Source: Streptomyces sp. NRRL F-5123 | Lineage (GTDB): Bacteria > Actinomycetota > Actinomycetes > Streptomycetales > Streptomycetaceae | Direction of reading: 5' to 3' | Length of the DNA: 64,000 nt | Assembly: GCF_000721495.1 (NCBI RefSeq) | Contig: NZ_JOHY01000017.1 | Span: forward strand, 1-64,000 | Shown here: positions 47,018 through 61,943 of the stretch, one piece after another | How positions within the stretch are numbered: position 1 is the first letter of the stretch | Layout of the letters: every line of letters begins with the position of its first letter | Made by a program: the position numbers and the translations under genes | The notes under the pieces: generated by a model | The model's input: only the letters and a program-made list of their open reading frames with translations | Told to the model about the DNA's origin: nothing | The model's database searches: none

Positions 47018-47775
47018 GCGGGGGCGTCCAGCGACTCGTCGAACACCACGGCCGTGTCCGGCAGTTGGGGCTTGGTCGCGTAGGCCACGAAGCTCTTGCC
47101 GATCAGCGGGTTGAGCGCCTGCTCGGCCAGCCGGGTGGCCAGCGGCTTCTTCATGATGTCCCACACCAGCAGCTTGTGGTAAAGCTTCACCGGCAGCGCC
47201 TTGTCGTTGTCGACGCCGACCGCGCACTTGATCCACCAGTACGGCGCGTGCAGGCCGTGCGCGTGGTGCGTGCCGTACGGGCGCAGGCCCGCCTCCCGCA
47301 TCCGCTCCAGCAGTTCGTCGGCCTTGTAGATGCGGATGTGGCCGCCCTCGACCTCGTGGTAGGCGTCGGAGAGCGCCCAGCAGACCTTCTCCGGCCCGTA
47401 GCGCGGCACGGTCACGGCGATACGGCCGCCGGGCCGCAGCACCCGCACCATCTCGGCGAGCACGCCCTTGTCGTCGGGGATGTGCTCCATCACCTCGGAG
47501 ATGATCACGACGTCGAAGCTGTCGTCGGGGAACGGGAGGTGGTGGGCGTCGCCCTCCATGGCCACCGCGCTCGCCCCCGCGGGCGCCTCGCCGGCCTCCC
47601 GCATCGCCGCGAACCACTTCGCGACCTCGCGGATCTCGTCGCCGTTGCGGTCCAGCGCGACGACCCGGGCGCCGCGGCGGTAGCACTCGAAGGCGTGCCG
47701 GCCGCCGCCGCAGCCGAGGTCCAGCACGCGGTCGCCTTCGGCAACGGGGAAGCGGGTGAAGTCGACGGTCAGCAT
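47014..47775 (-). CDS. Class I SAM-dependent methyltransferase (Methyltransf_11 type)
   Basis: The 253-residue protein has the SAM motif I VLDLGCGGGRHAFECYRRGA, the acidic strand VVALDRNGDEI, and MEGDAHHLPFPDDSFDVVII followed by SEVMEHIPDDKGVLAEMVRV and LRPGGRIAVTVPRYGPE. The C-terminal 90 residues add a substrate segment with HHAHGLHAPYWWIKCAVG. It starts inside the last codons of the glycosyltransferase gene (7-bp overlap) with GGGGAGC upstream, so it is translationally coupled on both sides. Confidence 0.92.
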   Translation of the reverse strand: MLTVDFTRFPVAEGDRVLDLGCGGGRHAFECYRRGARVVALDRNGDEIREVAKWFAAMREAGEAPAGASAVAMEGDAHHLPFPDDSFDVVIISEVMEHIPDDKGVLAEMVRVLRPGGRIAVTVPRYGPEKVCWALSDAYHEVEGGHIRIYKADELLERMREAGLRPYGTHHAHGLHAPYWWIKCAVGVDNDKALPVKLYHKLLVWDIMKKPLATRLAEQALNPLIGKSFVAYATKPQLPDTAVVFDESLDAPA

Positions 47776-49316
47776 GTGCTGCTCCCCGTTCCGGGTGCGT
47801 TGGCGTTTCCGGGCCCCCCGTGCGGGGAGCTGCGCTCTGCGGTGGGGGCCGAGCCACCAGGGGCGCGGCGGGCCCCCACCGGGGCGAGGGGCGCCGCCGA
47901 CCCGAGGGGGCTGTTGCTGTCGATGCCGGACCACCGGCCGGTGGGTGGTTGCTCGCTCCGCTCTCCCCCAGAGCTTCGCCTGGGAGGTGCCCCCACCCCA
48001 AAGCTTCGCCCGGGAGATGCCCCCACGCGCCCCTGGTGGTGGGGGCCCTCCGCGGAGTTGCCGTACGCCGCGATCGCCTCGCGGTACAGCTCCGCCGTCC
48101 GGGCAGCGGCGCGGGCCCAGGTGAAGTGGGTCAGGACGCGGGCGCGGCCCGCGGCGCCGAGGCGGCTGCGGAGGGCGGGGTCGGCGAGGGCGCGGTCGAG
48201 GGCCGCGGAGAGGGCGGGGGCGTCGCCCGGCGGGACCGCGAGGCAGGTCTCCCCGTCGGGCCCGGCGACCTCGGGGACGGCGCCGCCGGTGGTGGCGACC
48301 AGGGCCGTACCGGTCGCCATCGCCTCCGCGGCGGGGAGCGAGAAGCCCTCGTAGAGCGACGGCACGCACGCGACCTGGGCGCTGCGGATGAGGTCGACCA
48401 GCTCCGCGTCGCTTATGCCCTTGACGAAGTCGACCGCCCCTTCGAGCCCGTAGCGCCCGATCGCCTCGGCGACGGGCCCGGCTTCGGGGCGCTTGCCGAC
48501 GACGACCAGGTGCGCGTCCGGGTGCGCCGCCCGGACCTTCGCGAGCGCCTCGACGAGGAAGACCAGGCCCTTGAGGGGCACGTCGGCGCTGGAGGTCGTG
48601 ACGATCCGGCCGGGCACCTCGGGCACCGCCGGGTCGGGGCTGAAGAGCGCGGTGTCGGCGCCGATCGGCACGGTGTGCACACGCTCCGGCCGCACCCCGA
48701 GGTCCGCGGTGATCTCGGCGCTGGACGAGCCGGAGACGGTGAGCACGGACGGGAGCCGCCGGGCCACCCGCTTCTGCATCCGCGTGAAGCCGTACCAGCG
48801 GCGTACGGACGCGCGCCGCCGCCAGTCCTGCGCGGCGGCCAGTTCCAGCCGCCGGTCGACGGTGACGGGGTGGTGGATCGTGGTGACGAGCGGCATCCGC
48901 AGGCCCAGCAGCCCGTAGCCGAGTGTCTGGTTGTCGTGGACGACGTCGAAGTCGGCGCGGCGGGCGGCGAGATGGCGGCGGGCCCGCAGGCTGAAGGTGA
49001 GCGGCTCGGGGAAGCCGCCGGTCCACATGGTGGCGACCTCCAGCGCGTCGATCCAGTCGCGGTATTCGCCGCGCGAGGGCGTACGGAACGGGTCCGGCTG
49101 GCGGTAGAGGTCGAGGCTGGGCAGCTCGGTGAGGGTCACGCCCGCGCCGACCGCGTCGAGGACGGGGTAGGGCTGGGCGCCGATCACCTCGACGCCGTGG
49201 CCGAGCGCCGCCAGCTCGCGGGACAGGTGCCGTACGTAGACGCCCTGGCCGCCGCAGTACGGGTTGCCCTTGTAGCTCAGCAGCGCGATCCGCAGCGGTC
49301 TGGAATCTGCCGTCAC
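47769..49316 (-). CDS. GT4-type glycosyltransferase with repeat-derived C-terminal tail
   Basis: This 515-residue protein is a GT-B retaining glycosyltransferase: N-terminal IALLSYKGNPYCGGQGVYVRH, linker VTTIHHPVTVDRRLEL, donor-site segments VPIGADTALFSPDPAVPEVP and the E-x7-E motif in YEGFSLPAAEAMATGTALVA. The enzyme domain ends near residue 415 (ELYREAIAAYG). The last 95-100 residues are low-complexity Gly/Ser/Pro/Arg sequence encoded by two tandem copies of the dispersed C-rich element and their flanks. GTG 49316 follows a GGGGCCGGA stretch. It is the first gene of the three-gene operon. Confidence 0.92.
   Translation of the reverse strand: MTADSRPLRIALLSYKGNPYCGGQGVYVRHLSRELAALGHGVEVIGAQPYPVLDAVGAGVTLTELPSLDLYRQPDPFRTPSRGEYRDWIDALEVATMWTGGFPEPLTFSLRARRHLAARRADFDVVHDNQTLGYGLLGLRMPLVTTIHHPVTVDRRLELAAAQDWRRRASVRRWYGFTRMQKRVARRLPSVLTVSGSSSAEITADLGVRPERVHTVPIGADTALFSPDPAVPEVPGRIVTTSSADVPLKGLVFLVEALAKVRAAHPDAHLVVVGKRPEAGPVAEAIGRYGLEGAVDFVKGISDAELVDLIRSAQVACVPSLYEGFSLPAAEAMATGTALVATTGGAVPEVAGPDGETCLAVPPGDAPALSAALDRALADPALRSRLGAAGRARVLTHFTWARAAARTAELYREAIAAYGNSAEGPHHQGRVGASPGRSFGVGAPPRRSSGGERSEQPPTGRWSGIDSNSPLGSAAPLAPVGARRAPGGSAPTAERSSPHGGPGNANAPGTGSSTC
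47959..48035. repeat. Dispersed C-rich element, tandem copies C1 and C2
   Basis: CTCTCCCCCAGAGCTTCGCC, TGGGAGGTGCCCCCACCCC, then a second copy CAAAGCTTCGCCCGGGAGAT and GCCCCCACGCGCCCCTGG. Both lie inside the 3' end of the glycosyltransferase frame. Confidence 0.85.
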
Positions 49317-49365
49317 TCCGGCCCCCTTCGCAGCGATTGAGCCGGAGCGTAACCGGTCGCGCTAA

Positions 49366-49383
49366 TCTAGAACAAGTTTCAGA
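49366..49383. promoter_or_regulatory. KstR-like operator
   Basis: TCTAGAACAAGTTTCAGA contains TAGAACAAGTTTCA (49368-49381), an exact match to the mycobacterial KstR site TNNAACNNGTTNNA. It lies in the gap between the glycosyltransferase start (49316) and the TetR start (49482). Confidence 0.75.
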
Positions 49384-49481
49384 CTCGATGGTACAGAGGG
49401 TGGATCACCCGGCAACCGGACGGCCCCCCGCGGGCCCGCCCGGGGCGCGCGGGGCCGCCTGCGTGACGGACGGACGTGCCC

Positions 49482-50138
49482 ATGGACCGCATGACCGGCG
49501 GTGTGACCGGCGGGACCGGCGTGCCCGGTGGAACCAGTGTGACCGGTGCAGCCGGTGTGTCCAGTTTGTCGCGGCTGACCGTACGGCAGGAGGCCCGCCG
49601 GCGGCGCATCCTGGAGGCCAGCACCCGGCTCGCCGCCGGGGGCGGCTTCGACGCGGTCCAGATGCGGGAAGTGGCCGAGGAGTCCGGGGTCGCGCTCGGC
49701 ACGCTCTACCGCTACTTCCCGTCCAAGATCCATCTGCTGGTCGCGGTCATGCAGGACCAGCTCGGGCGGCTGCACGGCACGCTGCTGGACCGCCCGCCGG
49801 CCGCCTCGACCCCCGGCGAGCGGGTGGCCGAAACACTGCTGCGCGCCTTCCGCGCGCTGCAGCGCGAACCGCTGCTGGCGGAGGCGATGGTGCGGGCGGT
49901 GATCTTCGCCGACCGGTCGGTGCGCGAGGACGTCGACACCGTGTCGGTGCTGACCCGGGCGATCATCCTGGACGCGATGCGGCTGCCCGGGGAGCCGAGC
50001 GCGGAGTGCCTCTCGGCCGTTCGGGTGGTCGAGCACACCTGGCACGCGGCGCTGGTCAGCTGGCTGACCGACCGCGCGGCGGTGCGGCAGGTGCAGACGG
50101 ACATCAGGACGGTGTGCCGGCTGGTCCCGGCGGAGTGA
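49482..50138 (+). CDS. TetR family regulator, KstR-like
   Basis: A protein of about 218 residues. The N-terminal HTH reads RQEARRRRILEASTRLAAGG, FDAVQMREVAEESGVALGTL and YRYFPSKIHLLVAVMQDQLG, which closely follows KstR-type regulators of steroid catabolism in mycobacteria. The ligand domain is RAFRALQREPLLAEAMVRAV to CRLVPAE. A Gly/Thr/Val-rich N-terminal stretch of 25 residues precedes it. ATG 49482 (or GTG 49476) starts it. The KstR-type palindrome upstream suggests it represses itself and the divergent three-gene operon, with a CoA-thioester or isoprenoid signal as a possibility. Confidence 0.88.
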   Translation: MDRMTGGVTGGTGVPGGTSVTGAAGVSSLSRLTVRQEARRRRILEASTRLAAGGGFDAVQMREVAEESGVALGTLYRYFPSKIHLLVAVMQDQLGRLHGTLLDRPPAASTPGERVAETLLRAFRALQREPLLAEAMVRAVIFADRSVREDVDTVSVLTRAIILDAMRLPGEPSAECLSAVRVVEHTWHAALVSWLTDRAAVRQVQTDIRTVCRLVPAE

Positions 50139-50315
50139 AACGGCGGGCGCGGTGTCACCCACACGGGTGGCGCGAAGCGCTCGGCGGCGCGCGCCCCCCG
50201 AAAGCATCTCATCCACCCCTGTCTGCCTCCGAATGACGTGAATCAGGGTCCTCCTGGACAACTCGCCAGGGTAGGAATGGACCGCTCCCTTCCGGTCCCG
50301 CCCGTGAGGACCGGT

Positions 50316-50972
50316 ATGCGCCGAGACAAGGGGAAGGCCGAGTTGATACACGTTCTGGTGGCCCATGACACCAGCCTGATGCGGTCCGCACTGGCGGCGC
50401 TGCTGGGCAACGAGCCGGATTTCGTGGTGACCGACACGGGGTGGTGCCAGATGGGTGAGCCGGGGCGATGTCCCGGCTCACAGGTGTCCGTGGTGGACGC
50501 GGACTGTCCCGGCTGGCGCCGGCACACCGACCTGTACGCGACCCCCGGCGCCGGAGTGCGCGGGCTCGCGGACGGCGCCGGCGGCGGGCGCAGCGCGGTC
50601 ATCGTCCTGACCAGCAGCGGCAAGCCGGGCAACCTGCGGCGGGCGTACGCGGCGAACGCGCTCGGCTTCGTCAACAAGGACCGCTCCGCGGACCGCTTAC
50701 CGGCGGCGATACGCCGCGTCGCGGAGGGGAAACGGTTCGTCGACGAGTCGCTGGCGGTGGAGTTCCTGCAAGCCGCGGACATGCCGCTGACGCCGCGCGA
50801 GCTGAGCGTGCTGTCGCTCAGCGCGGAGGGCGCGTCCGTGACGGAGATCGCGCGCAGCCTGCACCTGTGCAACGGCACGGTGCGCAACTACCTCGCGGCC
50901 ATCACCCGGAAGACGGGGGCGCGCAACAGGGTGGACGCGATCAGGATCTCCCGCTTCGCGGGGTGGGTGTGA
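50316..50972 (+). CDS. ramR: RamR/AmfR-type atypical response regulator, SapB activator
   Basis: This protein of about 218 residues has a degenerate receiver domain (VLVAHDTSLMRSALAALLGN, with His-Asp instead of the usual acidic pair; Asp in VVDADCPGW; Lys in GFVNKDRS). A LuxR helix-turn-helix follows (LTPRELSVLSLSAEGASVTE to GTVRNYLAAITRKTGARNRV). In S. coelicolor and S. griseus the RamR/AmfR protein activates the adjacent ramC/amfT operon. Codon 128 (50697-50699) is TTA, which needs the bldA tRNA. GAGGA lies five bases before ATG 50316; TTG 50343 and ATG 50277 are alternatives. It converges on ramB with a 32-bp overlap. Confidence 0.92.
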   Translation: MRRDKGKAELIHVLVAHDTSLMRSALAALLGNEPDFVVTDTGWCQMGEPGRCPGSQVSVVDADCPGWRRHTDLYATPGAGVRGLADGAGGGRSAVIVLTSSGKPGNLRRAYAANALGFVNKDRSADRLPAAIRRVAEGKRFVDESLAVEFLQAADMPLTPRELSVLSLSAEGASVTEIARSLHLCNGTVRNYLAAITRKTGARNRVDAIRISRFAGWV

Positions 50973-52809
50973 GCGGGACCGCCTCCGGGGCGGGCGCGGG
51001 GGCCGGGGCGGGGGCCGGGGCCCAGGCGGCGGCGAGGTCGCGGTAGAGCGGCGAGAGCGCGAGCAGCTCGGCGTGCGGGGCGCACACGGTGTGCGCGCCG
51101 TCCAGCACGAGCGTGCGGGCGGCGCGGCGCGCGGAGCTGATGCGGTGGGCGACGACGACAAGGGTTGTTTCCGGCCGCGCCGCGAACGCCCGCTCCGCGC
51201 GGGCCTCCGCGTCCGCGTCCAGATGACAGGTCGCCTCGTCGAGCAGCACGATGCGGCCGGGGGCCGCGTACGTCCGGGCGAGCGCGAGCAGTTGCCGCTC
51301 CCCGGCGGAGAGGGCGGCCGGGTCGACCCGGCCGCCCAGCCCCCCCAGCGCCGCGACCAGCCCCCCGGCCCCCACCGCCGCGACGGCGTCCGCGACGGCC
51401 CGCTCCCCGGGCTCGCCCGGCTCTCCCGGCTCTCCCGGCAGCAGGTAGCCGACGTTCTCGGCGACCGTGCCGCGGAAGACGTACGCCTCCTGCGGCACGA
51501 GCACCACCTCCCCGCGGACCCGCACCTCCCCCGCGCCGGCCCGCAGCACCCCCGCGACCAGCCCCGCGAACGTCGACTTCCCCGCCCCGCTGGGCCCGAC
51601 GACGGCCAGGTGCTCCCCGTCCACGACGGCCAGGTCCACCGCGTCGAGCACCGGCACGGCGCCGGGCCCGTACGCGAAGCTGACCCCGCGCAGCTCGACG
51701 GCGACACCGCGCGGGGGCACCCCGCGGCCGCGTGCCGGAGAGCCGTCCGTGGCGGAGCCGTCCGCCCGCGCGGCACCCGGGGCCGCGGCCGGCGGGGTCA
51801 GTCGGGTCAGGATGACGCCCAGTCGGGTGCCCGCGGCGCCGAGGGTGTGGACGAGGTTCTGCAGGGCGGGCTGGAGGGACTGCGTCAGGTAGGCGAAGGC
51901 TCCGAGCAGCGCGCCCGGGGTGATGCGGTGCGAGGACAGCAGCCAGGGCGCCGCCAGCAGCAGCAGGACCAGCGGGAGCTGGCCGCCGACCGCGAGGGCC
52001 GCGGTGCGCACCACCCCGAAGCGGGCCAGTGAGCGGGCGGCCCCCAGCGCGGCCCCGATCCGCTCGTCGGCCCGCGCGGCGACGGGCTCGCGGGCCCCGC
52101 ACGCCGTGATGTCCCGCAGCCCCGCGGCGAGCGCCCCGCACTCCTGCGCGACCGCCTCGTCCGTCGTGAGGTAGCGGTTCTGCCGCCGGGCCAGCGGGCG
52201 CAGCGCCGCCACGAACAGCCCGACGCCCGCCGCGAGCGGCGGCAGCACCACGAGCAGCAGGACGGGCGCCAGCGCGACCATGCCGGCCAGCGCGCCCGCC
52301 GCCGTGAACGCGAAGGAGCGCAGCACCATGACGATGCCGCCGAAGGCGTCCCGCGCGATCTCCACCTGGTGCGTGAGCCGCGAGACGACCGCGGAGTCCG
52401 CCGTACGCCCACCGCCCCCGGCCCGTACGGCGTCGCGCAGCCCGCGCCGTACGACCCCGCGCACCAGCCGGTCCCGCAGCGGCTCGACGAGCGCGGCGAC
52501 CCCCCCGAAGACCCGCGCGGTCCCGTACGCCCCCGCGGGCACCCCGGCGGCGGCGAGCGCCAGCCACCACAGCCCGGTGCTCTCGCGCCCGCGCAGGAAG
52601 CCGTCGTCCATCGCCCGGGCGAGCGCGTACCCGAGCAGGAACGTCTGCCCGGCCTCCAGCACGGACCACGCCAGGAGCACCGCGACAACCCGGCCCCGCC
52701 CCCGGAAGGCGTCACGCAGCCGCATCCCCCCTCCCGTGTCCCCGCCCCCGCCCGGGCCGCCGTCGGCGTGCGGCCCGGGCGGGCGGTGGGCGGCGGGAGG
52801 CTCAGGCAT
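50941..52809 (-). CDS. ramB: RamB/AmfA-like ABC transporter, permease-ATPase fusion
   Basis: This 622-residue half-transporter has six membrane helices (about 40-310) and an ATPase with Walker A GPSGAGKST, signature LSAGERQLLALARTYAAPGR, Walker B IVLLDEATCHLD and the H-loop in VVVAHRISSARRA. It should pair with RamA to export the mature class III lanthipeptide. ATG 52809 overlaps the ramA stop by eight bases. The tail has a run of Ala-Pro dipeptides (WAPAPAPAPAPAPEAVP), and its 3' end is antisense to the end of ramR for 32 bp. Confidence 0.93.
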   Translation of the reverse strand: MPEPPAAHRPPGPHADGGPGGGGDTGGGMRLRDAFRGRGRVVAVLLAWSVLEAGQTFLLGYALARAMDDGFLRGRESTGLWWLALAAAGVPAGAYGTARVFGGVAALVEPLRDRLVRGVVRRGLRDAVRAGGGGRTADSAVVSRLTHQVEIARDAFGGIVMVLRSFAFTAAGALAGMVALAPVLLLVVLPPLAAGVGLFVAALRPLARRQNRYLTTDEAVAQECGALAAGLRDITACGAREPVAARADERIGAALGAARSLARFGVVRTAALAVGGQLPLVLLLLAAPWLLSSHRITPGALLGAFAYLTQSLQPALQNLVHTLGAAGTRLGVILTRLTPPAAAPGAARADGSATDGSPARGRGVPPRGVAVELRGVSFAYGPGAVPVLDAVDLAVVDGEHLAVVGPSGAGKSTFAGLVAGVLRAGAGEVRVRGEVVLVPQEAYVFRGTVAENVGYLLPGEPGEPGEPGERAVADAVAAVGAGGLVAALGGLGGRVDPAALSAGERQLLALARTYAAPGRIVLLDEATCHLDADAEARAERAFAARPETTLVVVAHRISSARRAARTLVLDGAHTVCAPHAELLALSPLYRDLAAAWAPAPAPAPAPAPEAVPLTPTPRSGRS

Positions 52810-54478
52810 CGGACGCTCCGAAGAGGGTGCGGTAGGCGGGATCGGGCCAGAGGTCGGTGTGCGGGGCCAGAGCCCGGAGGCGGCCCCCTTCCAGCCAGGC
52901 GACGAGGTCGGCGCGGGCCGCGGTGGTGGCGCGGTGGGTGGTGAGCAGGCGGGTGCGGTGCGGGTGGTCGTGGAAGAGGGCGCGGGCGACGCGCAGTTCG
53001 GTGACCGTGTCGAGGCTGGACGTCGCGTCGTCCAGGACGAGCAGCCGCCCCGGGTGGGCGAACGCCCTTGCCAGGCCGAGGCGTTGGTACTCCCCGCCGG
53101 AGAAGGGCGCGTCCTCGCGGAGGGTCGCGTAACCGGCGGGGAGCAGCGTCACGAAGCCGTCCGCCTCCGCGGCGCGCGCGGCCCGCGTGACGTGCTCGGC
53201 CGGGAGGGGGCGGGGCCCGAAAGCGACGGCGTCCGCGATCGTCTCGCCGAGCAGCACGGGACGTTCGAAGGCGTAGCCGACCGCGTCCCGCAGCTCGCGC
53301 TCCGCGAGGTCCGGCAGCGGGCAGCCGTCGAGCAGCACGGTGCCGCCGTCCGGGTCCGCCAACCGCCCGGCGAGCGCGGCCAGTACGGACTTGCCCGAGC
53401 CCGAGCGCCCCACCACGGCGACACAACTGCCGCCCGGCACGGTCAGGTTCAGCCCGTCCAGCACGGTCTCGCCGCCGCGGCACGCACGCACGTCGCGCAG
53501 TTCGAGCGTGCCCGGCCCCTGCGGGGGCAACTTCCGCTTCCCGTACGCCGGTACGGGCTCGGCCAGCACGTCGGCGACCCGCGCCGCCGCGGCCCGGCCG
53601 CGTACCAGCGCGCCCAACTGGCCGACGACCACGCCGATCCCGGTGGCCAGCAACACGTAGCGGCCCGCCGCGAGGAGGTCGCCGGGGCTCAGCGCGCCCT
53701 GCGCCAGGCGGACGCCGCCCACCGCGAGCACGGCGATCTGGAGCAGCGGCACCAGCACCATCGACTGCGCCGTGGCCCGGCCCTGCACCTGCCACATCTT
53801 CCGCCCGTGCTCGCCCAGTTCGGGCAGCGGCCCGAGCACGCGGGCCGTCTCGCGGCGCTCGGTCCCGGCCGCGGCGATGGTGCGGGCCCCACCGAGCGCC
53901 TCGACCAGCAGCGTCGCGATCCGGCCCTGCGTCTCCTGGTAGCCGGTGACGCAGTCCGCCGACGCGCGGGCGAAGCGGTGGACGAGCAGTGTCAGGAGCG
54001 GGGCGCCCGCGAGGAAGACCGCGGCGAGCCACAGGTCGGTGAGGCCCAGAGCGACGATGCCGCCGACCGGTGCGGCGAGGGCCGCGGGCAGGGCGGCGGC
54101 GGCCGCGGGGGTGCCGGCGGCGTCGGCGGCGTTGCCGACCAGCCGGGTGACGAGGTCGCCCTCGCCGTGCCGGGCGGCGGCGCGCGGTCCCGCGGCGAGC
54201 ATGTGCCGCAGGGTGCGGCGGCGTACGAACGCGGTGGCTCGCGCCGTCGTCACGCCCGTGAGCAGGTCTTCCGCCGCGGCGGTCGCCGCCTGGGCGGCGA
54301 CGATCGCCGCGCACAGGGCGACCCAGCGGGTCGCGGATTCGCCGCGCAGCAGGAGGTCCAGGGCGTGGCCCAGGGCGGCGGGCAGCCCCACCGCCCCCGC
54401 GGCGGACGCGAGCCCCAGCACGCTCAGGGCGGTGACCCGCCCCACGTCCCGCCGTGCGGCCTCTGCGACGAGTCCCAT
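52802..54478 (-). CDS. ramA: RamA/AmfB-like ABC transporter, permease-ATPase fusion
   Basis: The 558-residue protein has six predicted membrane helices in residues 1-300. Its ATPase has Walker A GRSGSGKSVLAALAGRL, signature FSGGEYQRLGLARAFAHPGR and Walker B LLVLDDATSSLD. The catalytic Glu after Walker B is Asp, so this may be the less active site of a RamA-RamB heterodimer. ATG 54478 is preceded by GGGAGAGG. It is preceded by a 570-bp repeat-rich gap instead of directly following ramS, and is translationally coupled to ramB. Confidence 0.93.
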   Translation of the reverse strand: MGLVAEAARRDVGRVTALSVLGLASAAGAVGLPAALGHALDLLLRGESATRWVALCAAIVAAQAATAAAEDLLTGVTTARATAFVRRRTLRHMLAAGPRAAARHGEGDLVTRLVGNAADAAGTPAAAAALPAALAAPVGGIVALGLTDLWLAAVFLAGAPLLTLLVHRFARASADCVTGYQETQGRIATLLVEALGGARTIAAAGTERRETARVLGPLPELGEHGRKMWQVQGRATAQSMVLVPLLQIAVLAVGGVRLAQGALSPGDLLAAGRYVLLATGIGVVVGQLGALVRGRAAAARVADVLAEPVPAYGKRKLPPQGPGTLELRDVRACRGGETVLDGLNLTVPGGSCVAVVGRSGSGKSVLAALAGRLADPDGGTVLLDGCPLPDLAERELRDAVGYAFERPVLLGETIADAVAFGPRPLPAEHVTRAARAAEADGFVTLLPAGYATLREDAPFSGGEYQRLGLARAFAHPGRLLVLDDATSSLDTVTELRVARALFHDHPHRTRLLTTHRATTAARADLVAWLEGGRLRALAPHTDLWPDPAYRTLFGASDA

Positions 54479-54554
54479 GGCCTCTCCCTTCCGAACGCTC
54501 CGACCTGCCACGTGCGGTGTCCCGCACGACCTCCCGCCGGTGGTGGGTTGCGCA

Positions 54555-54758
54555 CGCAGTTCTCCCCCGGGCTTCGCCTGGGCCGTGCCCCCACGCGCCC
54601 CCGGGGCATTGCCACTCGGCGTGGCATGTCGCCCTTCCCCCGGTGGGGGCTGGTCGCGCAGTTCTCCCCCGGGCTTCGCCTGGGCCGTGCCCCCACGCGC
54701 CCCCGGGGCATTGCCACTTGGCGTGGCATGTCGGCTTTCCCACCGCTGTGGCCGAGCG
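54555..54758. repeat. 102-bp tandem repeat containing dispersed elements D1 and D2
   Basis: Unit 1 (54555-54656) and unit 2 (54657-54758) begin CGCAGTTCTCCCCCGGGCTT. They agree almost base for base over the first 75 positions (one difference, ACTCGG against ACTTGG), then diverge. A partial third start, CGCAGTTCCCCGCGCCCCTG, follows at 54759. Confidence 0.9.
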
Positions 54759-54835
54759 CGCAGTTCCCCGCGCCCCTGAAAACGCTCACCCCGCGCGGTG
54801 AGGGGTCGCTTCTGCCGCGCAGGGCAACCCCCAGG

Positions 54836-54915
54836 GGCGCGTGGGGGCACCTCCCGGGCGGAGCCCGGGGGTGAATTGCGCTCCCCCGGCGCTCCGCCCG
54901 GGCGGTGCCCCCAGC
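54836..54915. repeat. Inverted copies of the dispersed C-rich element (D3, D4)
   Basis: GGCGCGTGGGGGCACCTCCC, GGGCGGAGCCCGGGGG is the element in reverse orientation to D1 and D2. A direct-orientation partner, CTCCCCCGGCGCTCCGCCCG, GGCGGTGCCCCC, follows. Together with D1 and D2 these can form long hairpins. Confidence 0.8.
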
Positions 54916-55048
54916 CACAGCGGCGGGGAGGTCGCGCGGACCGCACGGGGCAGCCCGGGGCGCAACGGGGGCCCACCCCCGTGGGTGGGGTACGGGGTCG
55001 GCCCCGGGGGGCGGTTGGGGCCGCCGCCCGGGGCCGCCGCCGCGGGGG

Positions 55049-55165
55049 CTAGAGGCAGATCAGGAAGCTCACGGAGCTGATGCAGCTCAGCAGGCTCAGA
55101 GAGCTCGCGGCCCCGCCGCCGTGGTTGTTCTCGGTCTCCATGTTCTGCAGGTCGAGGAGCGCCAT
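55049..55165 (-). CDS. ramS: RamS/AmfS-like class III lanthipeptide precursor
   Basis: A 38-residue precursor, too short for routine gene calling. The leader begins MALLDLQNMETENNHGGG and contains the LLDLQ motif recognised by class III synthetases. The core (from about residue 19) holds two S-x2-S-x3-C motifs: Ser21-Ser24-Cys28 and Ser30-Ser33-Cys37. This resembles AmfS of S. griseus. Each motif predicts a labionin- or lanthionine/dehydroalanine-containing ring, giving a SapB-type surfactant that coats emerging aerial hyphae. GAAGGGAC lies before ATG 55165. It lies 70 bp after ramC. Confidence 0.95.
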   Translation of the reverse strand: MALLDLQNMETENNHGGGAASSLSLLSCISSVSFLICL

Positions 55166-55235
55166 GACATGTCCCTTCGTCGGTCGTGCGTGGATGGGTG
55201 GTGCGCGGTCCCGGCCGCGAGTGGCCGGGCCCGGT

Positions 55236-58037
55236 TCAGGAGCCGCCCGTGAAGGGCGGGAGGAAGGGCAACCCCGCGGCGGCGGCGCCGCCGGTCGCGG
55301 CTCCCAGGGCGAGCAGGCAGCCGGCGGTGCCGGTGCCGAGGTCCATGGAGAGCCGCATCATCTGGTTGCCGGGGAAGGCGAGCCCGCCGCCGTACGGCAT
55401 GCCGTACCAGCCGAGCGCGCCGGTCTGCTCGGCGAGCGCCCCGGCAGGCACGGGGGTGCGCGTGCGCGCGAGGTGCAGCAGCGTGCCGGCCCGGCCGGCG
55501 AGGAGGCCGGGCTGGGCGTACAGCCGGAGCGTGGCGGCGCGCACGATGTCGGTGCGGGCCTGCTCGAAGCGGACGGCGTCGTCGGGGGTGAGGGTCCCGG
55601 CGTGCCGGGCGAGCGGCAGCAGGTCGTCGAGGACCATGCCGATGCCCGCGCTGCCGTCGCCGAGGTACGGCATGGTGCGCCAGCCCTCGTCGACGTCGAG
55701 GCCGCCCGCGGCGGTGTGCACGCAGCGGTCGAGGTCGAGGGACAGCGCGCGGGCGGCGTGCACGAGCAGGCCGCGCGCGCCGGTGCGCTCGTAGAGGCGT
55801 ACGAAGAGCAGCGCGGCGCCGGTCGCCCCGTGCATGAGCCCGGCGCGCGGGGTGCCGCCGGAGAGCCGGGCGGCGACGATGCCGGCGGCCTCCAGGGCGC
55901 GGTCGCGCAGCGAGATGTCGCCGGTGCTGCGGGCGAGGCCGTCCAGGACCAGGCCGAGGCCGGCGAGGCCGCCGTACAGGTCGGAGGCGAGGTGCTGCCA
56001 CTTCTCGGCGAGCAGGGTGTGGACGAGGTCGAGCGCGCGGTCGGTGTGGCCGAGCCGGTCGAGGACGTACGCGATCCCGGCGACGCCGTCGTAGAGGCCG
56101 AGCGGGGTGCCGTTCGGGGGCGGCGCGGTGCGGTCCAGGAGCCAGCGCTCGCCCTCGGGGTAGCGGGGCAGCCCGGTCTCGGCGAAGGCGAGCAGCACGC
56201 CGGCGGCGCCGTGCGCGATCCCGAGGCCGCCGCCGTCGCCGAACTGTGCGATGTCGCCGGGGAAGAGCCGGTCGTCGCGCCGCGGTGTCGCGGACGCGAG
56301 GATCGCGTGGGCCATGGCGTCGCGTGCCGCGGGCCAGTCCCCGACGTCGACGGGCAGGTAGCCGCGCGAGCGGCCGACCGCCGTGCGGGCGGCCCCGGTC
56401 GGCGCCGGCCGGGCCGCGGGCCCCTGCTCGGGGGCGTCCTCCCGCCCGGACGGCGCCACCGCCCCCGGCCCGGCCGCGGGTCCCCCGCCCGCAGCCTCCC
56501 CCGGGCCTTCCTCACGGGTGATCTCGTGTACCGCCTCCGCCAACCACGCGTGGGGCACCGGGAATTGCCCGGCGATCACCTCCGCCAGATGGGCCGCCTT
56601 CGTACGGTCGATCGGCAGGAGGGTGGTGACGGGGAGGAAGAGGGCCAGGCGCAGGCACGCGAGGGCGTAGCGGTCGACGGCCGTGCCGCGGCGGTCGGGG
56701 GGCGCCATGAAGCCGGGGTGGGCGACGGACTGGCCGCGCCCGTCTCCGGCGTCTGTCGCCGCCTCGAAGTCCAGGAGGCGGACGGACTCGTCGTCGGGGC
56801 CGACCATGACGTTGTACATGTGCAGGTCGTTGACGACGAGGCCGCGCGCGTGGACCGCGGCGACGGCCCGCTCCACGCCCTTGTGGATCCGAAGCGCCCA
56901 GCGCGTGTAGCCGGCGACGGCCTCCGGGTCGGGCTCGGGCGTGAGCAGCGGGTGGCGGTGGCCGAAGTAGCTGTTGAGCGGCTTGCCTTCGAGGAATTCC
57001 ATGACCAGGAAGCGGTGGTCGCCGAGGGTGAACCAGTCGCGTGCCTCGGGCGCGACGCCCGACCCGCCGAGCGCGCGCAGCACGTCGCGCTCGCGCTCCA
57101 GGCGGGTGACGGCGTCGGCGCCGTCGGAGGCGAGCCCGGCGTGCGGGCGGCCCTCCTTGAGGACGACCTTCTCCCCGGTGCGGGTGTCGATCGCGGTGTA
57201 GACCCCGCCGCCGTTGGAGAAGTGCAGTGCCTTCTCGATGCGGTACGGGAGTTCGCCGACGGTCGTGGCGTTGCGCGCCTTCAGGTGCGGGCGCAGGAAG
57301 TCCGGCAGCGTCACCCACTCCGGTACGTGGAAGGCGGGCGCGCGGCTGTCGGGGACGAGCCGGCCCTCGGCGTCCTCGATCGCTGAGACCAGCGTGCCGT
57401 GCTCGCCGACGCAGAAGCGTTTGGCGAAGGCCCCGTAGCGCACGTAGAGCGGGCCCTCGCGCCAGCGCAGGTCGGTGAGGATGTACGGGCCGGGTTCGCC
57501 GTCGAGGAGTTCGCCGAGTTCTTCGAGGATCTCGCGCAACTGCGGTTCGCCGTCCGGGTAGATGGTGACGAACTTTCCGCTGGTGTCGCGCCCGGCATAT
57601 TTCGAATTGCGCAGGTGCAGCAGCTGCGGGCTGGGCACGAATTTAAACGGAATGCCACGGGGCACGCAGTGGTCCCACACCTTGGCGGCCACCTTGTCGG
57701 CGTTGCCGAGGCCGGCGGAGACATGGATCTTCCAGCCCTGCAGGGGGCGTTCGCCCCCGCCGGAGCTGGCGTCCGCGCCGACGGCCGGGCCCGGGTCGAG
57801 GTGCAGCCAGTCCCCGACCCGGAGGGTGCGCCAGCCGTCCGGCACATCGCGCTGCGCGGTCTCGAAGGCGGCGACCGGCGTCCGGACCGGCCCCTCTCCC
57901 GAGACCGCGCCCGACACCGCGCCGCCCACCGCACCGGATGCCGAAGCGGAATCACCGGACACGGCCATGGGAAGCCGGTCGAGGCTTTCGTAGAAATGCC
58001 GGTCCGCGAGGCAGAAAACCTCGTAGCGGTTGTCCAT
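55236..58037 (-). CDS. ramC: Class III lanthipeptide synthetase (RamC/AmfT, LanKC)
   Basis: The 933-residue enzyme has three parts. An N-terminal lyase-like region (1-240) is followed by a protein-kinase-like domain (about 260-500; Lys294 in VVLKEGRP, Asp404 in VVNDLHMYN, Asp423 in LLDFEAA). A C-terminal LanC-like cyclase (about 560-933) follows a Pro/Gly/Ala linker. The cyclase has MHGATGAALLF, MPYLGDGSAGIGMVLDDLLP and GWYGMPYGGG but lacks the Cys-Cys-His zinc ligands of class I/II cyclases, as expected for class III. It phosphorylates Ser/Thr of RamS, eliminates phosphate and forms the rings. ATG 58037 follows AAGGGGGATCG; the frame is open to 58076. Confidence 0.95.
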   Translation of the reverse strand: MDNRYEVFCLADRHFYESLDRLPMAVSGDSASASGAVGGAVSGAVSGEGPVRTPVAAFETAQRDVPDGWRTLRVGDWLHLDPGPAVGADASSGGGERPLQGWKIHVSAGLGNADKVAAKVWDHCVPRGIPFKFVPSPQLLHLRNSKYAGRDTSGKFVTIYPDGEPQLREILEELGELLDGEPGPYILTDLRWREGPLYVRYGAFAKRFCVGEHGTLVSAIEDAEGRLVPDSRAPAFHVPEWVTLPDFLRPHLKARNATTVGELPYRIEKALHFSNGGGVYTAIDTRTGEKVVLKEGRPHAGLASDGADAVTRLERERDVLRALGGSGVAPEARDWFTLGDHRFLVMEFLEGKPLNSYFGHRHPLLTPEPDPEAVAGYTRWALRIHKGVERAVAAVHARGLVVNDLHMYNVMVGPDDESVRLLDFEAATDAGDGRGQSVAHPGFMAPPDRRGTAVDRYALACLRLALFLPVTTLLPIDRTKAAHLAEVIAGQFPVPHAWLAEAVHEITREEGPGEAAGGGPAAGPGAVAPSGREDAPEQGPAARPAPTGAARTAVGRSRGYLPVDVGDWPAARDAMAHAILASATPRRDDRLFPGDIAQFGDGGGLGIAHGAAGVLLAFAETGLPRYPEGERWLLDRTAPPPNGTPLGLYDGVAGIAYVLDRLGHTDRALDLVHTLLAEKWQHLASDLYGGLAGLGLVLDGLARSTGDISLRDRALEAAGIVAARLSGGTPRAGLMHGATGAALLFVRLYERTGARGLLVHAARALSLDLDRCVHTAAGGLDVDEGWRTMPYLGDGSAGIGMVLDDLLPLARHAGTLTPDDAVRFEQARTDIVRAATLRLYAQPGLLAGRAGTLLHLARTRTPVPAGALAEQTGALGWYGMPYGGGLAFPGNQMMRLSMDLGTGTAGCLLALGAATGGAAAAGLPFLPPFTGGS

Positions 58038-58096
58038 CGATCCCCCTTGTGGCGGTGACGGACACGAGATTTCCATATCGGCGGGCGGGCGGAGAA

Positions 58097-58110
58097 GTCA
58101 CTGTTGTCAC
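58097..58110. promoter_or_regulatory. Direct repeat upstream of ramC
   Basis: GTCAC occurs at 58097-58101 and again at 58106-58110, a 9-bp spacing, about 65 bp before the ramC ATG. It is a candidate RamR binding region based on position only. Confidence 0.3.
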
Positions 58111-58213
58111 CTCCTGGCCGTGCGGAACGCACGGGTCCGGCGGGCGCGTCGGCGTAGTCCGGGGGCGGGGTCGGCGTAGTCCGGCGGGCGTGCCGGAGAG
58201 GGCGCGCGGCCGC

Positions 58214-59074
58214 TCAGTTGCCGAAGGAGGCGGGCGTGAGCTTGAGCGCGGACAGCAGCGCCCGGTCGCGGACCGCGGTGGGCAGCCGCCGGGCGACGCG
58301 GACGGTGCGGGCGTCCGGCCCCACGAGGTAGCGGGTACGGGGGCGGCGCGCGGTGAGGGCGTGCCGGACGGCGTCGACGGCCGCGTCCACCGGGTGCAGC
58401 TTGCTCGCGGCGACGGACGCGGCCGCGGCCTCCACCGCGCGGGCGTAGCGGCGTTCGACGTCGGGCCCGCCCGCGAGGCCGTCCGCCTGCGCGGAGCGGA
58501 CGGCGCGGTCGAAGATCCCGGTCCGCATCGCGCCGGGTTCCACGAGGGCCACGCGCACGCCCTGGTGCCGCAGTTCGATCCGCAGTGAGTCGGTGAGCGA
58601 GGCGAGTGCGGCTTTGGAGGCGGCGATCGGGCCGAAGAAGGGGAGGGCGACGAGCGAGCTGAGGGCGCCGATGTTGACGATCCGCCCGCCGCCCGCCCGG
58701 ACGGCGGGCAGCACCGCGCGGGTGACGGCCATCAGCCCGAGGACGTTGACGTCGAACTGCCGGCGCAGCGCGTCGCCGGGCACCTGCTCCCAGAAGCCCT
58801 GCACGATCAGGCCCGCGCTGTTGACCAGCCCGTCGAGGCGGCCTCCGACCTGCTCCGCGGCGCCTCGCACGCTCGCGTCGTCGGTGACGTCGAGGACGAC
58901 GGGGCGTACGTCGCCGGGGAGTTGGGCGAGCCGCGGCGCGTCCTGGGGGGCGCGGTGGGCCGCGTGGACCGTCCAGCCCTCGGCGGCGAGCCGCCGGGTG
59001 ACGGCGAACCCGAGGCCGCCGGTTGCTCCCGTGACCAGCACGGACCTGGCGGGCGGGGTGGCTGTGTGCGACAA
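58214..59074 (-). CDS. SDR family protein lacking the catalytic tyrosine
   Basis: This 286-residue protein has the classical SDR nucleotide motif TGATGGLG, the acidic strand LDVTDD, the NSAG motif (LDGLVNSAGL) and Ser in IVNIGALSSL. At the YxxxK position it reads PFFGPIAASKAALA, so isoleucine replaces the catalytic tyrosine while the lysine remains. Substrate oxidoreduction by the usual mechanism is therefore unlikely. The start is TTG 59074 with AAAGG eight bases upstream; a GTG just before VLVTGATGG is an alternative. It lies upstream of and co-directional with ramC, 176 bp apart. Confidence 0.88.
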   Translation of the reverse strand: MSHTATPPARSVLVTGATGGLGFAVTRRLAAEGWTVHAAHRAPQDAPRLAQLPGDVRPVVLDVTDDASVRGAAEQVGGRLDGLVNSAGLIVQGFWEQVPGDALRRQFDVNVLGLMAVTRAVLPAVRAGGGRIVNIGALSSLVALPFFGPIAASKAALASLTDSLRIELRHQGVRVALVEPGAMRTGIFDRAVRSAQADGLAGGPDVERRYARAVEAAAASVAASKLHPVDAAVDAVRHALTARRPRTRYLVGPDARTVRVARRLPTAVRDRALLSALKLTPASFGN

Positions 59075-59519
59075 GGGACGTGCCTTTCGGTGGGAGTGGA
59101 CTCCCTTTCACCCTCGGCCGGTTGGCGGCAGCCGTGAAGAGTGGGGTTCCTACTGGTGGCGCCGGCACCAGGATCGGCGGCGGCAACCGCCGGGCCCCGC
59201 CTCCGCGTCGACCGCCGGACCCCGCCTCCGCGTCAACCGGACGCCCGCCCGACCCGACGCCGTCCGACTGATGCTCTTCGGCCATCCGGGGGCCTCCGGG
59301 CACCCGGCGCGGCCCGCACCGCGCGAAAAGACCGCGACAACCCGTACCCCGTCAACACCCGTACGCCATAAGGGAGTTGACTGTCCGAGAACATATGTAC
59401 CGCCGAACCTTATGGGGCAATACTGCCCCTCTGCAACCTTGTCGCCGAAATTTCCAGAAACGATCTGGACCCGGCGTGAGCGGAACGGCACACTCGAACC
59501 AGAGTCAAGAAGGGACACC
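59075..59519. other. Intergenic region, SDR and XRE genes
   Basis: This 445-bp divergent gap has an AT-richer part (59370-59470) with the inverted repeat GGGGCA-ATAC-TGCCCC at 59414-59429. The repeat may be the operator of the XRE gene at 59520. No gene is evident. Confidence 0.55.
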
Positions 59520-60374
59520 ATGCCGCTCAGAAGCACCGCAACCGCCCGTCAGGAGCGCCTCGGTGCGGAGCTACGGAAGATGCGCGAGGCAGCCGGAATC
59601 ACCGCCCGCGACACCGCCCGTCTGCTCGGCACCGACCCGGCCAAGGTCAGCCACATCGAGGCCGGGCGGCTCGGCGTCAGCGAGGAGCGGCTGCGGCGCC
59701 TCGCGTCGTTCTACCAGTGCGGTGACGAGGCCCTCATCGACGCGCTGGTGGTGATGGCCAACGGCATCGGCCGCAAGGGCTGGTGGGAGGCCTACCGGGG
59801 GATCGTGCCGGCCCCGATCCTGGACATCGCCGAGCTGGAGTTCCACGGCACCTCGATGCGCGCCGTCCAGATCACCCACATCCCCGGGGTGTTCCAGACC
59901 GAGGACTACACCCGCACGATGTTCAGCAACACGGTCCTGCCGCTGCCGCAGGCCGAGCTGGAGGCCCGTATCGCCCACCGGCTGGAACGCAGCGGCGTCC
60001 TCTACCGGGATTCGGCGGCGCCGTACGAGGCGGTGATCCACGAAGCGGCGCTGCGGATGGGCTACGGCGGCCCCAAGATCGCCCGGGCGCAGCTCGACCA
60101 CCTGGTGGAGCTGAGCCACCTGCCGCGGATAAGCGTCCGGGTCGTACCCTTCGCCACCCACGCGTACTTCAGCTCCGGCCACGTCCACCTGTACGTGTGC
60201 GGCGCCGTGCCCGCCCTCGACACGGTGCAGATGGACTCCTCGCCCGGCCCGATCTTCCTGCACGCCGCGCCGCACCTGGCCAACTACCGCGTCATTCACC
60301 AGCGTCTCGCCGCAGCCGCGCTCGACGAGTCCCAGTCGCGGGACTTCATCCACGCCGTCGCCCGAGACCTCTGA
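59520..60374 (+). CDS. XRE family regulator with DUF5753 domain
   Basis: The 284-residue protein has an N-terminal Cro/CI helix-turn-helix (ELRKMREAAGITARDTARLL, GTDPAKVSHIEAGRLGVSEE) and the DUF5753 domain (YRGIVPAPILDIAELEFHGT, THIPGVFQTEDYTRTMFSN, EARIAHRLERSGVLYR, ISVRVVPFATHAYFSSGHVH). It is the full-length version of the regulator broken at 25203-25640. AAGGGACACC precedes ATG 59520. It is followed after 16 bp by its DUF397 partner. Confidence 0.93.
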   Translation: MPLRSTATARQERLGAELRKMREAAGITARDTARLLGTDPAKVSHIEAGRLGVSEERLRRLASFYQCGDEALIDALVVMANGIGRKGWWEAYRGIVPAPILDIAELEFHGTSMRAVQITHIPGVFQTEDYTRTMFSNTVLPLPQAELEARIAHRLERSGVLYRDSAAPYEAVIHEAALRMGYGGPKIARAQLDHLVELSHLPRISVRVVPFATHAYFSSGHVHLYVCGAVPALDTVQMDSSPGPIFLHAAPHLANYRVIHQRLAAAALDESQSRDFIHAVARDL

Positions 60375-60390
60375 CATCCGAAGGCAGCCG

Positions 60391-60585
60391 ATGACCGCGC
60401 ATACCACGACCTGGCAGAAATCCACGTACTCGAACGATTCGGGCGATTGTGTGGAGGTCGCCGCCACGGCGGGTGGCACGGTGCTGATACGGGAGAGTGA
60501 CGATCCGGGCGTCGTGCTGTCCACGACGCCCGGCGCGCTGGCCCGCTTCCTCCAGGCGATCAAACGGGGCTCGGCCGCCGGCTGA
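60391..60585 (+). CDS. DUF397 domain protein
   Basis: A 64-residue protein with the DUF397 pattern TWQKSTYSNDSGDCVEVAAT, then VLIRESDDPGVVLSTTPGAL. It is the probable functional partner of the preceding XRE regulator. A 10-bp hairpin follows the stop. Confidence 0.9.
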   Translation: MTAHTTTWQKSTYSNDSGDCVEVAATAGGTVLIRESDDPGVVLSTTPGALARFLQAIKRGSAAG

Positions 60586-60587
60586 CA

Positions 60588-60612
60588 CTCCGGCGCCCGC
60601 CCGGCGCCGGAG
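60588..60612 (+). terminator. Terminator after the XRE-DUF397 pair
   Basis: CTCCGGCGCC and GGCGCCGGAG form a perfect 10-bp stem with a 5-nt loop. Confidence 0.8.
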
Positions 60613-60680
60613 CCCGCCACGGCCGGCCGAAGGCCGCACGTTAGGGTGAGGGATCCCCCGTCCCGGAAAGGCCCGCTCCC

Positions 60681-61943
60681 ATGTCCCTGCGCCGCCGCGC
60701 CGCCCTGCTGGTGACCGCCGCCTCGACGCTCACGGCCCTGGCCGCGCCCGCCGCGCTCGCGGACACCACGCCGCCCGCCGCGCCGAGCACCCCGCCCGTC
60801 ACACGCGCGGACCTCTACGGCGCGGGCGACCCGACGTACGACGGGGTGTGGCGGCAGGGCTACGCGGAGATAGCCGTGTCCATGGGCGGCTACTTCGTCA
60901 ACGGCCGGGCTTCCTCCTGGCTGCTCGCCCAGCAGTGCGCGGACGGCGGCTGGCCCTCCTACCGCGCGGACACGGCCAAGCCCTGCGACCCGAAGACCGA
61001 GGACACCAACGCCACCGGCATGGCCCTCCAGGCGCTCCAGCTGACCGGCGCCGGGAGTCCCGCGGTCAAACGCGCGCGTGACTGGCTGGCCAAGGTGCAG
61101 AACGCCGACGGCGGTTGGTCGTACAACCCCGGCGGCCCCTCCGACCCCGACTCCACCGCAGTCGTCATCGCCGGAATCGGCGCGGACGCCGCCCGCAAGC
61201 CCAACGCCAAGGGCAAGTCGCCCTACGACGCGCTGCGCGGCTTCCAGTTCGGCTGCTCGGCCGCGCCCGCCGACCGCGGCGCCTTCGGCTACCCCGGCAC
61301 GGACGGCAAGCTCGTCCCGAACGCGAAGGCCACCGCCGACGCCCTGCGCGGCCTGGCCGACGCACGCCTCGCCGGCCGGCAGGTCACCGAGACCGCCACG
61401 ACCACGCCCACCGCCCCCGACTGCGCCGCGGACCCCGACGCCTACGCCTCACTCGACCCGGTGGGCACGGCGGCGGCGGCCGGCACCTGGCTGGCCGCCC
61501 AGGTCGCCAAGGGCGGCGGCCACCTCACCGCCGTCACCCCCGGTGCGACGGCGCCGGTCCCGGACTACGGCACCACCGCCGACGCCGTCGTGGGCCTCGC
61601 CAACGCCGGCCACGTGACGGAGGCCCAGCGGACCTACACGTGGCTTGCCGCCAACTCCGCTGCCTGGGCCAAGGGAAACCCCGCCGCCCTCGCGCAGCTG
61701 GTCCTCGCCGCGAACGCCGCGCAGTCCCCCCGCGCCTCCGGCGCCGACGACCCGCTCCCCCAGCTCATCGCCCTCGGCCCGGCCGCCACCAAGCGCGCGA
61801 CCGGCGCCGAACTGCGCTCCGACGACAAGAAGGACGACGGCCTGTCGTCCAGCGCCACGACCTGGATCATCGTCGGCGTCGTCTTCGTCGCGAGCGCCGG
61901 TTTCGGCCTCCTCCTCAGCGGCCGCAAGCGACGCCGTCCATGA
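60681..61943 (+). CDS. Secreted, membrane-anchored prenyltransferase-fold protein
   Basis: This 420-residue protein has a signal peptide (about 1-27, ending AAPAALA) and alpha-toroid repeats (SSWLLAQQCADGGWPSYRAD, DWLAKVQNADGGWSYNPGG, GTWLAAQVAKGGGHLTAVT) like squalene cyclase/prenyltransferase folds and intrinsic factor. A C-terminal membrane helix (TTWIIVGVVFVASAGFGLLL) and basic end form a sorting or stop-transfer anchor. The intrinsic-factor-like fold, next to SCO2322-type and CbiQ genes, suggests capture of a corrinoid or similar nutrient. Its stop overlaps the next gene (ATGA). I chose GTG/ATG 60681 because MSLRRRAALL begins the signal peptide. Confidence 0.9.
   Translation: MSLRRRAALLVTAASTLTALAAPAALADTTPPAAPSTPPVTRADLYGAGDPTYDGVWRQGYAEIAVSMGGYFVNGRASSWLLAQQCADGGWPSYRADTAKPCDPKTEDTNATGMALQALQLTGAGSPAVKRARDWLAKVQNADGGWSYNPGGPSDPDSTAVVIAGIGADAARKPNAKGKSPYDALRGFQFGCSAAPADRGAFGYPGTDGKLVPNAKATADALRGLADARLAGRQVTETATTTPTAPDCAADPDAYASLDPVGTAAAAGTWLAAQVAKGGGHLTAVTPGATAPVPDYGTTADAVVGLANAGHVTEAQRTYTWLAANSAAWAKGNPAALAQLVLAANAAQSPRASGADDPLPQLIALGPAATKRATGAELRSDDKKDDGLSSSATTWIIVGVVFVASAGFGLLLSGRKRRRP

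What the first reader, a model, noticed from the sequence alone, without database searches (positions are those of the whole stretch)
50316..58037. Complete SapB-type class III lanthipeptide locus with an AmfS-like precursor
RamC, RamS, RamA, RamB and RamR homologs are all present. The 38-residue precursor has two S-x2-S-x3-C motifs and a GGG junction, and is closer in its core to AmfS than to RamS. It predicts a morphogenetic surfactant peptide of novel exact sequence needed for aerial growth.
Basis: partly seen in the sequence, partly recalled or inferred. Interest (0 to 1): 0.7.

Follow-up and report, generated by a model that had tools for sequence, protein, structure and literature searches.

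The report
Ordinary SapB-family aerial-growth peptide locus
A soil bacterium related to Streptomyces carries a complete five-gene set for making a small, greasy, ring-bridged peptide of the kind thought to help such bacteria grow hyphae into the air; it is a new copy of a known system, closest to a recently described peptide called durhapeptin.

Summary
The locus is real and complete: ramC (class III lanthionine synthetase), ramS (38-aa precursor), two ABC half-transporters and a convergent ramR, at the stated coordinates. Precursor and synthetase pass the curated SapB/AmfS and LanKC cut-offs. (1) The core is durhapeptin-like rather than AmfS-like: its two S-x2-S-x3-C motifs are one residue apart, not two, and its synthetase lies in a 16-row clade whose precursors all share that linker. 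(2) The predicted product is not new: the last 22 residues are identical in a public protein named SapB/AmfS family. (3) A need for aerial growth is untested; 15 of 35 congeneric genomes lack RamS, and three of them keep ramR with the operon deleted. One extra: ramR holds the locus's only TTA codon, at a place unique among 31 relatives, of which 23 have a TTA somewhere in ramR. This fits known bldA gating, with turnover of the codon's position. New member of a known kind; low interest.

The parts
50316..50972 (+). ramR-like orphan regulator, 218 aa, LuxR-type (GerE) DNA-binding domain; convergent with the operon and overlapping its last gene by 32 bp
   Evidence: GerE 55.0 bits; the receiver is not called by Pfam at 0.001. 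D61 is kept in 29 of 31 and K121 in 29 of 31 relatives. 63-100% identity to the best match in 20 of 35 congeneric genomes, some over part of the length only
50697..50699 (+). TTA codon 128 of ramR, the only TTA in the five genes; likely bldA checkpoint
   Evidence: tRNA-Leu(UAA) present in the genome. That it limits translation was not tested
50941..52809 (-). ABC half-transporter, 622 aa (ramB-like)
   Evidence: ABC_tran 60.8 bits; no peptidase domain found
52802..54478 (-). ABC half-transporter, 558 aa (ramA-like)
   Evidence: ABC_membrane 77.9 and ABC_tran 71.9 bits; no peptidase domain found
55049..55165 (-). ramS, lanthipeptide precursor, 38 aa: LLDLQ leader, Gly spacer, core SSLSLLSC-I-SSVSFLIC-L
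   Evidence: PF19402 55.7 bits, NF033212 58.4 bits
55236..58037 (-). ramC, class III lanthionine synthetase (lyase, kinase, LanC-like cyclase), 933 aa
   Evidence: NF038151 1070.8 bits; RamC_N, Pkinase and LANC_like in Pfam
54479..55048 (-). 570-bp gap between ramS and the next transporter gene, holding a dispersed repeat
   Evidence: 49 matches to 54554-54733 in the own genome, the query itself included

Best explanation
This is the SapB/AmfS-family morphogen locus of an Actinacidiphila species, of the durhapeptin sub-type. Inferred from family knowledge: RamR switches on ramC-S-A-B; RamC binds the LLDLQ leader, phosphorylates and eliminates Ser21, Ser24, Ser30 and Ser33, and closes two rings on Cys28 and Cys37, probably labionins as proposed for durhapeptin. 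RamA and RamB export the peptide; a protease encoded elsewhere (an AplP-like M1 enzyme is the best candidate) trims the leader to a very hydrophobic peptide of about 18-23 residues, which acts at the colony surface as a surfactant or local signal for aerial hyphae. RamR translation is probably gated by the bldA tRNA through one TTA codon. Shown here: gene content, order, family membership, core type, the TTA and its tRNA. Not shown: product, rings, export, cleavage, phenotype.
For: Family models over their cut-offs. Same gene order and convergent ramR in relatives and in the description of the durhapeptin, ram and amf loci (PMC13380574). One-residue ring linker and 10 of 16 ring positions shared with durhapeptin. 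LanKC clade of 16 rows, all with that linker. TTA in ramR, tRNA-Leu(UAA) and 6 chaplin matches in the genome.
Against: No product, ring or phenotype data. 15 of 35 congeneric genomes lack RamS and three have deleted the operon, so the peptide is dispensable in the genus. Durhapeptin S26T did not act on its own producer, and only four strains responded. Two rows outside the clade (L038, L046) also have one residue between the first Cys and the next Ser, so the linker alone is not a perfect marker. Labionins rest on MS of one triple variant of durhapeptin.
Confidence: 0.8

Rival explanations
1. AmfS/SapB-type product: two plain lanthionine rings, interchangeable with AmfS.
For: Same S-x2-S-x3-C motifs; second ring more hydrophobic than SapB's, as in AmfS (BLOSUM62 48 against 41). 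PMC13380574 says that ring type is hard to predict from the synthetase.
Against: Linker of one residue, not two; closer to durhapeptin by identity and score; the LanKC groups apart from those with SapB-like precursors (L042, L044, L051). AmfT itself was not in the tree.
Confidence: 0.25
2. The locus is complete but silent or decaying in this strain.
For: Three congeners have lost the operon by deletion. A dispersed repeat lies in the 570-bp ramS-ramA gap, against about 95 bp in L057 and L059.
Against: All five frames are open and full length, with 94-97% GC3 in ramC, S, A and B. The gap is also wide in other intact loci (about 380 bp in L058, roughly 580 bp in L063).
Confidence: 0.05
3. The peptide has another role (for example an antimicrobial) and no part in aerial growth.
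For: Class III peptides with other activities exist (labyrinthopeptins; reference titles seen). Patchy presence in the genus.
Against: Hydrophobic SapB/AmfS-type core, ramR-type regulator, transporter pair and TTA codon, all as in the morphogen loci.
Confidence: 0.08

Closest known systems
Durhapeptin locus (durKC-durA-durT-ORF3-ORF4, Streptomyces durhamensis; PMC13380574)
   Same: Gene content with a response-regulator gene beside it, LLDLQ leader, two S-x2-S-x3-C motifs one residue apart, C-terminal CL, Ser before the first Cys
   Different: 10 of 16 ring positions identical; spacer differs. The paper marks a G-X site for a transporter protease domain; no peptidase domain was found in the transporters here
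Precursor P0023, SapB/AmfS family lanthipeptide of Streptomyces sp. NPDC021020
   Same: Last 22 residues identical
   Different: One residue shorter spacer; no experimental work known to me
AmfS, Streptomyces griseus (recalled sequence; P0146 at 93% identity)
   Same: Family, motifs, hydrophobic rings
   Different: Two-residue linker EY, TP tail, 9 of 16 ring positions
SapB/RamS, Streptomyces coelicolor (recalled sequence; P0026 at 95% identity)
   Same: Family, ramC-S-A-B plus ramR locus (PMC4255298)
   Different: Two-residue linker GD, more polar second ring, 9 of 16 ring positions. S. coelicolor ramR has no TTA (asterisk in Table 2 of PMC4255298)

Membership tests
SapB/AmfS family lanthipeptide (NF033212, PF19402) | Precursor over the curated cut-offs | tested here: met
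   58.4 bits (cut-off 25) and 55.7 bits (cut-off 24.3)
Class III lanthipeptide | LanKC synthetase next to the precursor | tested here: met
   NF038151 1070.8 bits (cut-off 575) against LanL 363.6 (cut-off 650)
ramCSAB-ramR type locus | C, S, two ABC half-transporters, ramR-type regulator in this order | tested here: met
   same order in relatives
Durhapeptin sub-type | Two S-x2-S-x3-C motifs with a one-residue linker, and synthetase in the same clade as others of that kind | tested here: met
   DurKC itself was not in the tree
AmfS sub-type | Two-residue linker (EY in the recalled AmfS) | tested here: not met
   One residue, I29
Labionin-containing peptide | Labionin rings in the product | not testable with these tools
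   Needs MS
Morphogenetic lanthipeptide | Induces or is needed for aerial hyphae | not testable with these tools
   No phenotype data; dispensable in part of the genus
bldA-gated gene | TTA codon in the gene and tRNA-Leu(UAA) in the genome | tested here: met
   actual dependence not tested

The most novel reading that the evidence does not exclude
In this genus the peptide is a lineage dialect rather than an essential surfactant. The core type is kept within the locus's clade, the operon is repeatedly deleted while ramR stays, and selection keeps a TTA (bldA) checkpoint on ramR without keeping its place, so that the codon is lost and regained at new positions (window: codon 128; near relatives: 29, 52/53, or in ramC instead). 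Orphaned ramR would then have another target.
Probability: 0.3. Interest if true: 0.45.

Novelty: new member of a known kind. Interest (0 to 1): 0.2.

Why it matters
It adds a set of durhapeptin-type morphogen loci in Actinacidiphila and gives exact masses to look for. The recurring but wandering TTA codon in ramR, and three operon deletions that leave ramR behind, make two questions testable: whether bldA gating of the morphogen is selected as such, and whether RamR has targets besides its own operon.

Tried and rejected
Peptidase domain in the transporters (cleavage at a G-X site, as the durhapeptin figure legend marks): not supported here, no peptidase domain in either transporter. Terminator-like hairpin downstream of ramS: the 109-nt stretch folds only slightly better than shuffles (z -1.46; 11 of 200 as good), so nothing is claimed. 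GGG as a fixed protease junction: rejected, the spacer runs from no Gly (L057) to eight Gly in a row (L024). AdpA consensus TGGCSNGWWY in window 49901-50400: no exact match on either strand. Exact core in print: none of four core strings occurs in the held papers, but four recalled SapB and AmfS core strings occur in none either, so this absence says little. Actinacidiphila with lanthipeptide: 3 papers listed, not opened. Position turnover of the ramR TTA: 4 papers hold ramR, TTA codon and bldA; two were seen in passages or sections, which give presence and no positions; two were not opened.

The LanKC family search of the genus gives matches in 35 of 35 genomes and in 12 of 14 controls, mostly ordinary kinase domains, so only rows over the cut-off are used. 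The Fisher test (odds ratio 31.8, p 1.4e-26) ignores the relatedness of the loci.

Full report
What is there. The five genes are at the stated coordinates and strands. The LanKC (933 aa) scores 1070.8 bits with the class III model NF038151 (cut-off 575) and has RamC_N, kinase and LanC-like domains. Of 13 distinct PDB sequences that match, the top one is a kinase domain (7wj6, 344.9 bits); others are annotated LanKC or kinase-domain proteins. The precursor (38 aa) is over the cut-offs of NF033212 and PF19402. The transporters are two ABC half-transporters without a recognised peptidase domain. ramR is convergent and overlaps the last transporter gene by 32 bp. One RamS-family match was found in the own genome, this one; a second, more distant LanKC lies at G000:C27:12675-15275 (601.6 bits).

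Organism. So the window is most likely from an Actinacidiphila species in the GTDB sense; this is inference from contig lengths.

Core type. The core reads SSLSLLSC-I-SSVSFLIC-L. On 16 ring positions it has 9 identities to RamS and 9 to AmfS (both recalled; BLOSUM62 41 and 48), and 10 (BLOSUM62 52) to durhapeptin as printed in PMC13380574. The recalled RamS and AmfS match database clusters at 95% and 93%. The linker is one residue here and in durhapeptin, two in RamS and AmfS. In the script, 168 of 169 precursors matched the double motif, 24 with one residue and 144 with two, and P0168 did not match. That split only mirrors the three search seeds: the 24 are the window twice (WINDOW and P0001), durhapeptin and the 21 others; only the 120 listed of 134 hits were used. 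The independent evidence is the LanKC tree (36 rows, quick method): the window lies in a 16-row clade (SH-aLRT 98) that also holds S. africanus and Streptomyces sp. GQFP, and all 16 have a one-residue linker by reading. Outside it, L038 has one too, and L046 has one residue after a shorter first motif. SapB-like precursors (L042, L044, L051) sit in a separate starred clade. L068 in that tree is a broken gene on a long branch; RamC, AmfT and DurKC are not in it.

Not a new product. P0023 (Streptomyces sp. NPDC021020, named SapB/AmfS family lanthipeptide) shares the last 22 residues with the window and P0019 the last 23. P0019 lists no source and may come from a genome near the window's. Only the leader-core spacer differs.

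Distribution. 20 of 35 genomes of the genus have a RamS-family match (20 of the 33 that are at least 90% complete and at most 5% contaminated). 20 of 35 have a RamR-type gene whose best match is 63-100% identical, some over part of its length; the next matches are at 46% or less (counted by hand). Three of these 20 (G006, G043, G002) have no RamS. In L062 (G006) both flanks match the window, but window 51010-59343 is replaced by about 620 bp. In L075 (G002) pieces of ramC remain and nothing matches window 50976-56515. In L068 (G043) ramC is cut after about 147 codons and runs on into ramB. G006 and G002 are assemblies of 1 and 3 contigs; G043 has 470. So the operon has been lost at least in part more than once, with ramR or most of it kept. 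Three genomes (G003, G011, G017) have RamS-family precursors without a RamR-type match; in G003, G011 and one of two loci of G017 the precursor is of another kind. Phenotypes of these strains are unknown to me. PMC4255298 (passages) reports such clusters in most streptomycetes, with S. hygroscopicus an exception.

TTA codon. ramR codon 128 (50697-50699) is the only TTA in the five genes. Of 47 loci (46 fetched plus the window), 7 duplicates were dropped; 31 of the remaining 40 have a ramR, and 23 of 31 have a TTA in it. Pooled: 32 of 725 Leu codons in ramR against 8 of 3774, 1 of 2584 and 4 of 2614 in ramC, ramA and ramB. In the 27 loci with all four genes usable: TTA in ramR only 16, ramR and ramC 3, ramC only 2, ramR and ramB 1, ramR, ramA and ramB 1, none 4 (L039, L043, L046, L074; L046 is a Streptosporangiaceae MAG, and the ramR N-terminus of L074 is uncertain). 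Positions vary: 53 in 12, 79 in 7, 14 in 4, 29 in 3, six others once each, the window's 128 among them. All 31 have Leu at 128: 25 CTG, 4 CTC, 1 TTG, 1 TTA. The nearest relative, L026, has no TTA in ramR and one in ramC. On the RamR tree, presence needs at least 7 changes, and position 53 alone 7; the alignment near 52-53 is loose. That ramR or ramC of most such clusters holds a TTA is known (PMC4255298, passages); the turnover of position I saw in none of the passages read. The genome has tRNA-Leu(UAA).

RamR. Pfam calls only the GerE domain at 0.001. The likely phosphoacceptor D61 is kept in 29 of 31 and K121 in 29 of 31, while the acidic pair is H17-D18 in most rows. Which residue is the phosphoacceptor is my reading from general knowledge of receivers.

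Mechanism. As in Best explanation. Leader removal probably needs an outside protease: PMC10885120 (passages) describes AplP-like M1 enzymes that often lie outside class III loci. I did not search for one here. Predicted masses are; the same calculation gives 1966.01 for unmodified durhapeptin and 1908.99 for the S26T ion, as printed. Native durhapeptin in E. coli carried glutathione, attributed to a Dha from Ser26 beside the first Cys. The window has Ser27 at that place, where many congeners have Gly, so a fifth dehydration is possible and not needed for rings. [quoted passage not shown]

Surroundings. The own genome has 6 chaplin-family matches, so other aerial-surface proteins are present. 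Flanks are conserved in L026 (window 46067-64000 with breaks).

Papers. PMC13380574: parts 1-3 of 5 of the text. PMC4255298: passages and section 12. PMC4021200, PMC9011353, PMC10604976, PMC10885120, PMC8960859: passages. Others: search listings only.

Noticed in passing
50697-50699; L026-L076: A TTA codon recurs in ramR (23 of 31 loci) but at ten different positions; the window's, codon 128, is unique in the set.
   Followed up: partly
L062, L068, L075: Three congeneric genomes keep ramR, or most of it, while the rest of the operon is wholly or largely deleted; flanks conserved.
   Followed up: partly
54554-54881: Dispersed G+C-rich repeat in the ramS-ramA gap, two tandem copies and an inverted piece, 49 matches in the genome.
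   Followed up: partly
G000:C27:12675-15275: Second, more distant LanKC in the same genome, 601.6 bits with NF038151.
   Followed up: no
40451-41059: Another response-regulator-like gene, 43% identical to RamR.
   Followed up: no
60681-61943: ORF with a weak squalene-hopene-cyclase-like match (28.1 bits against a cut-off of 26.1).
   Followed up: no
58593-60374 and 47769-49316: Flanking genes: an HTH_31/DUF5753 regulator (+) and a group 1 glycosyltransferase (-).
   Followed up: no
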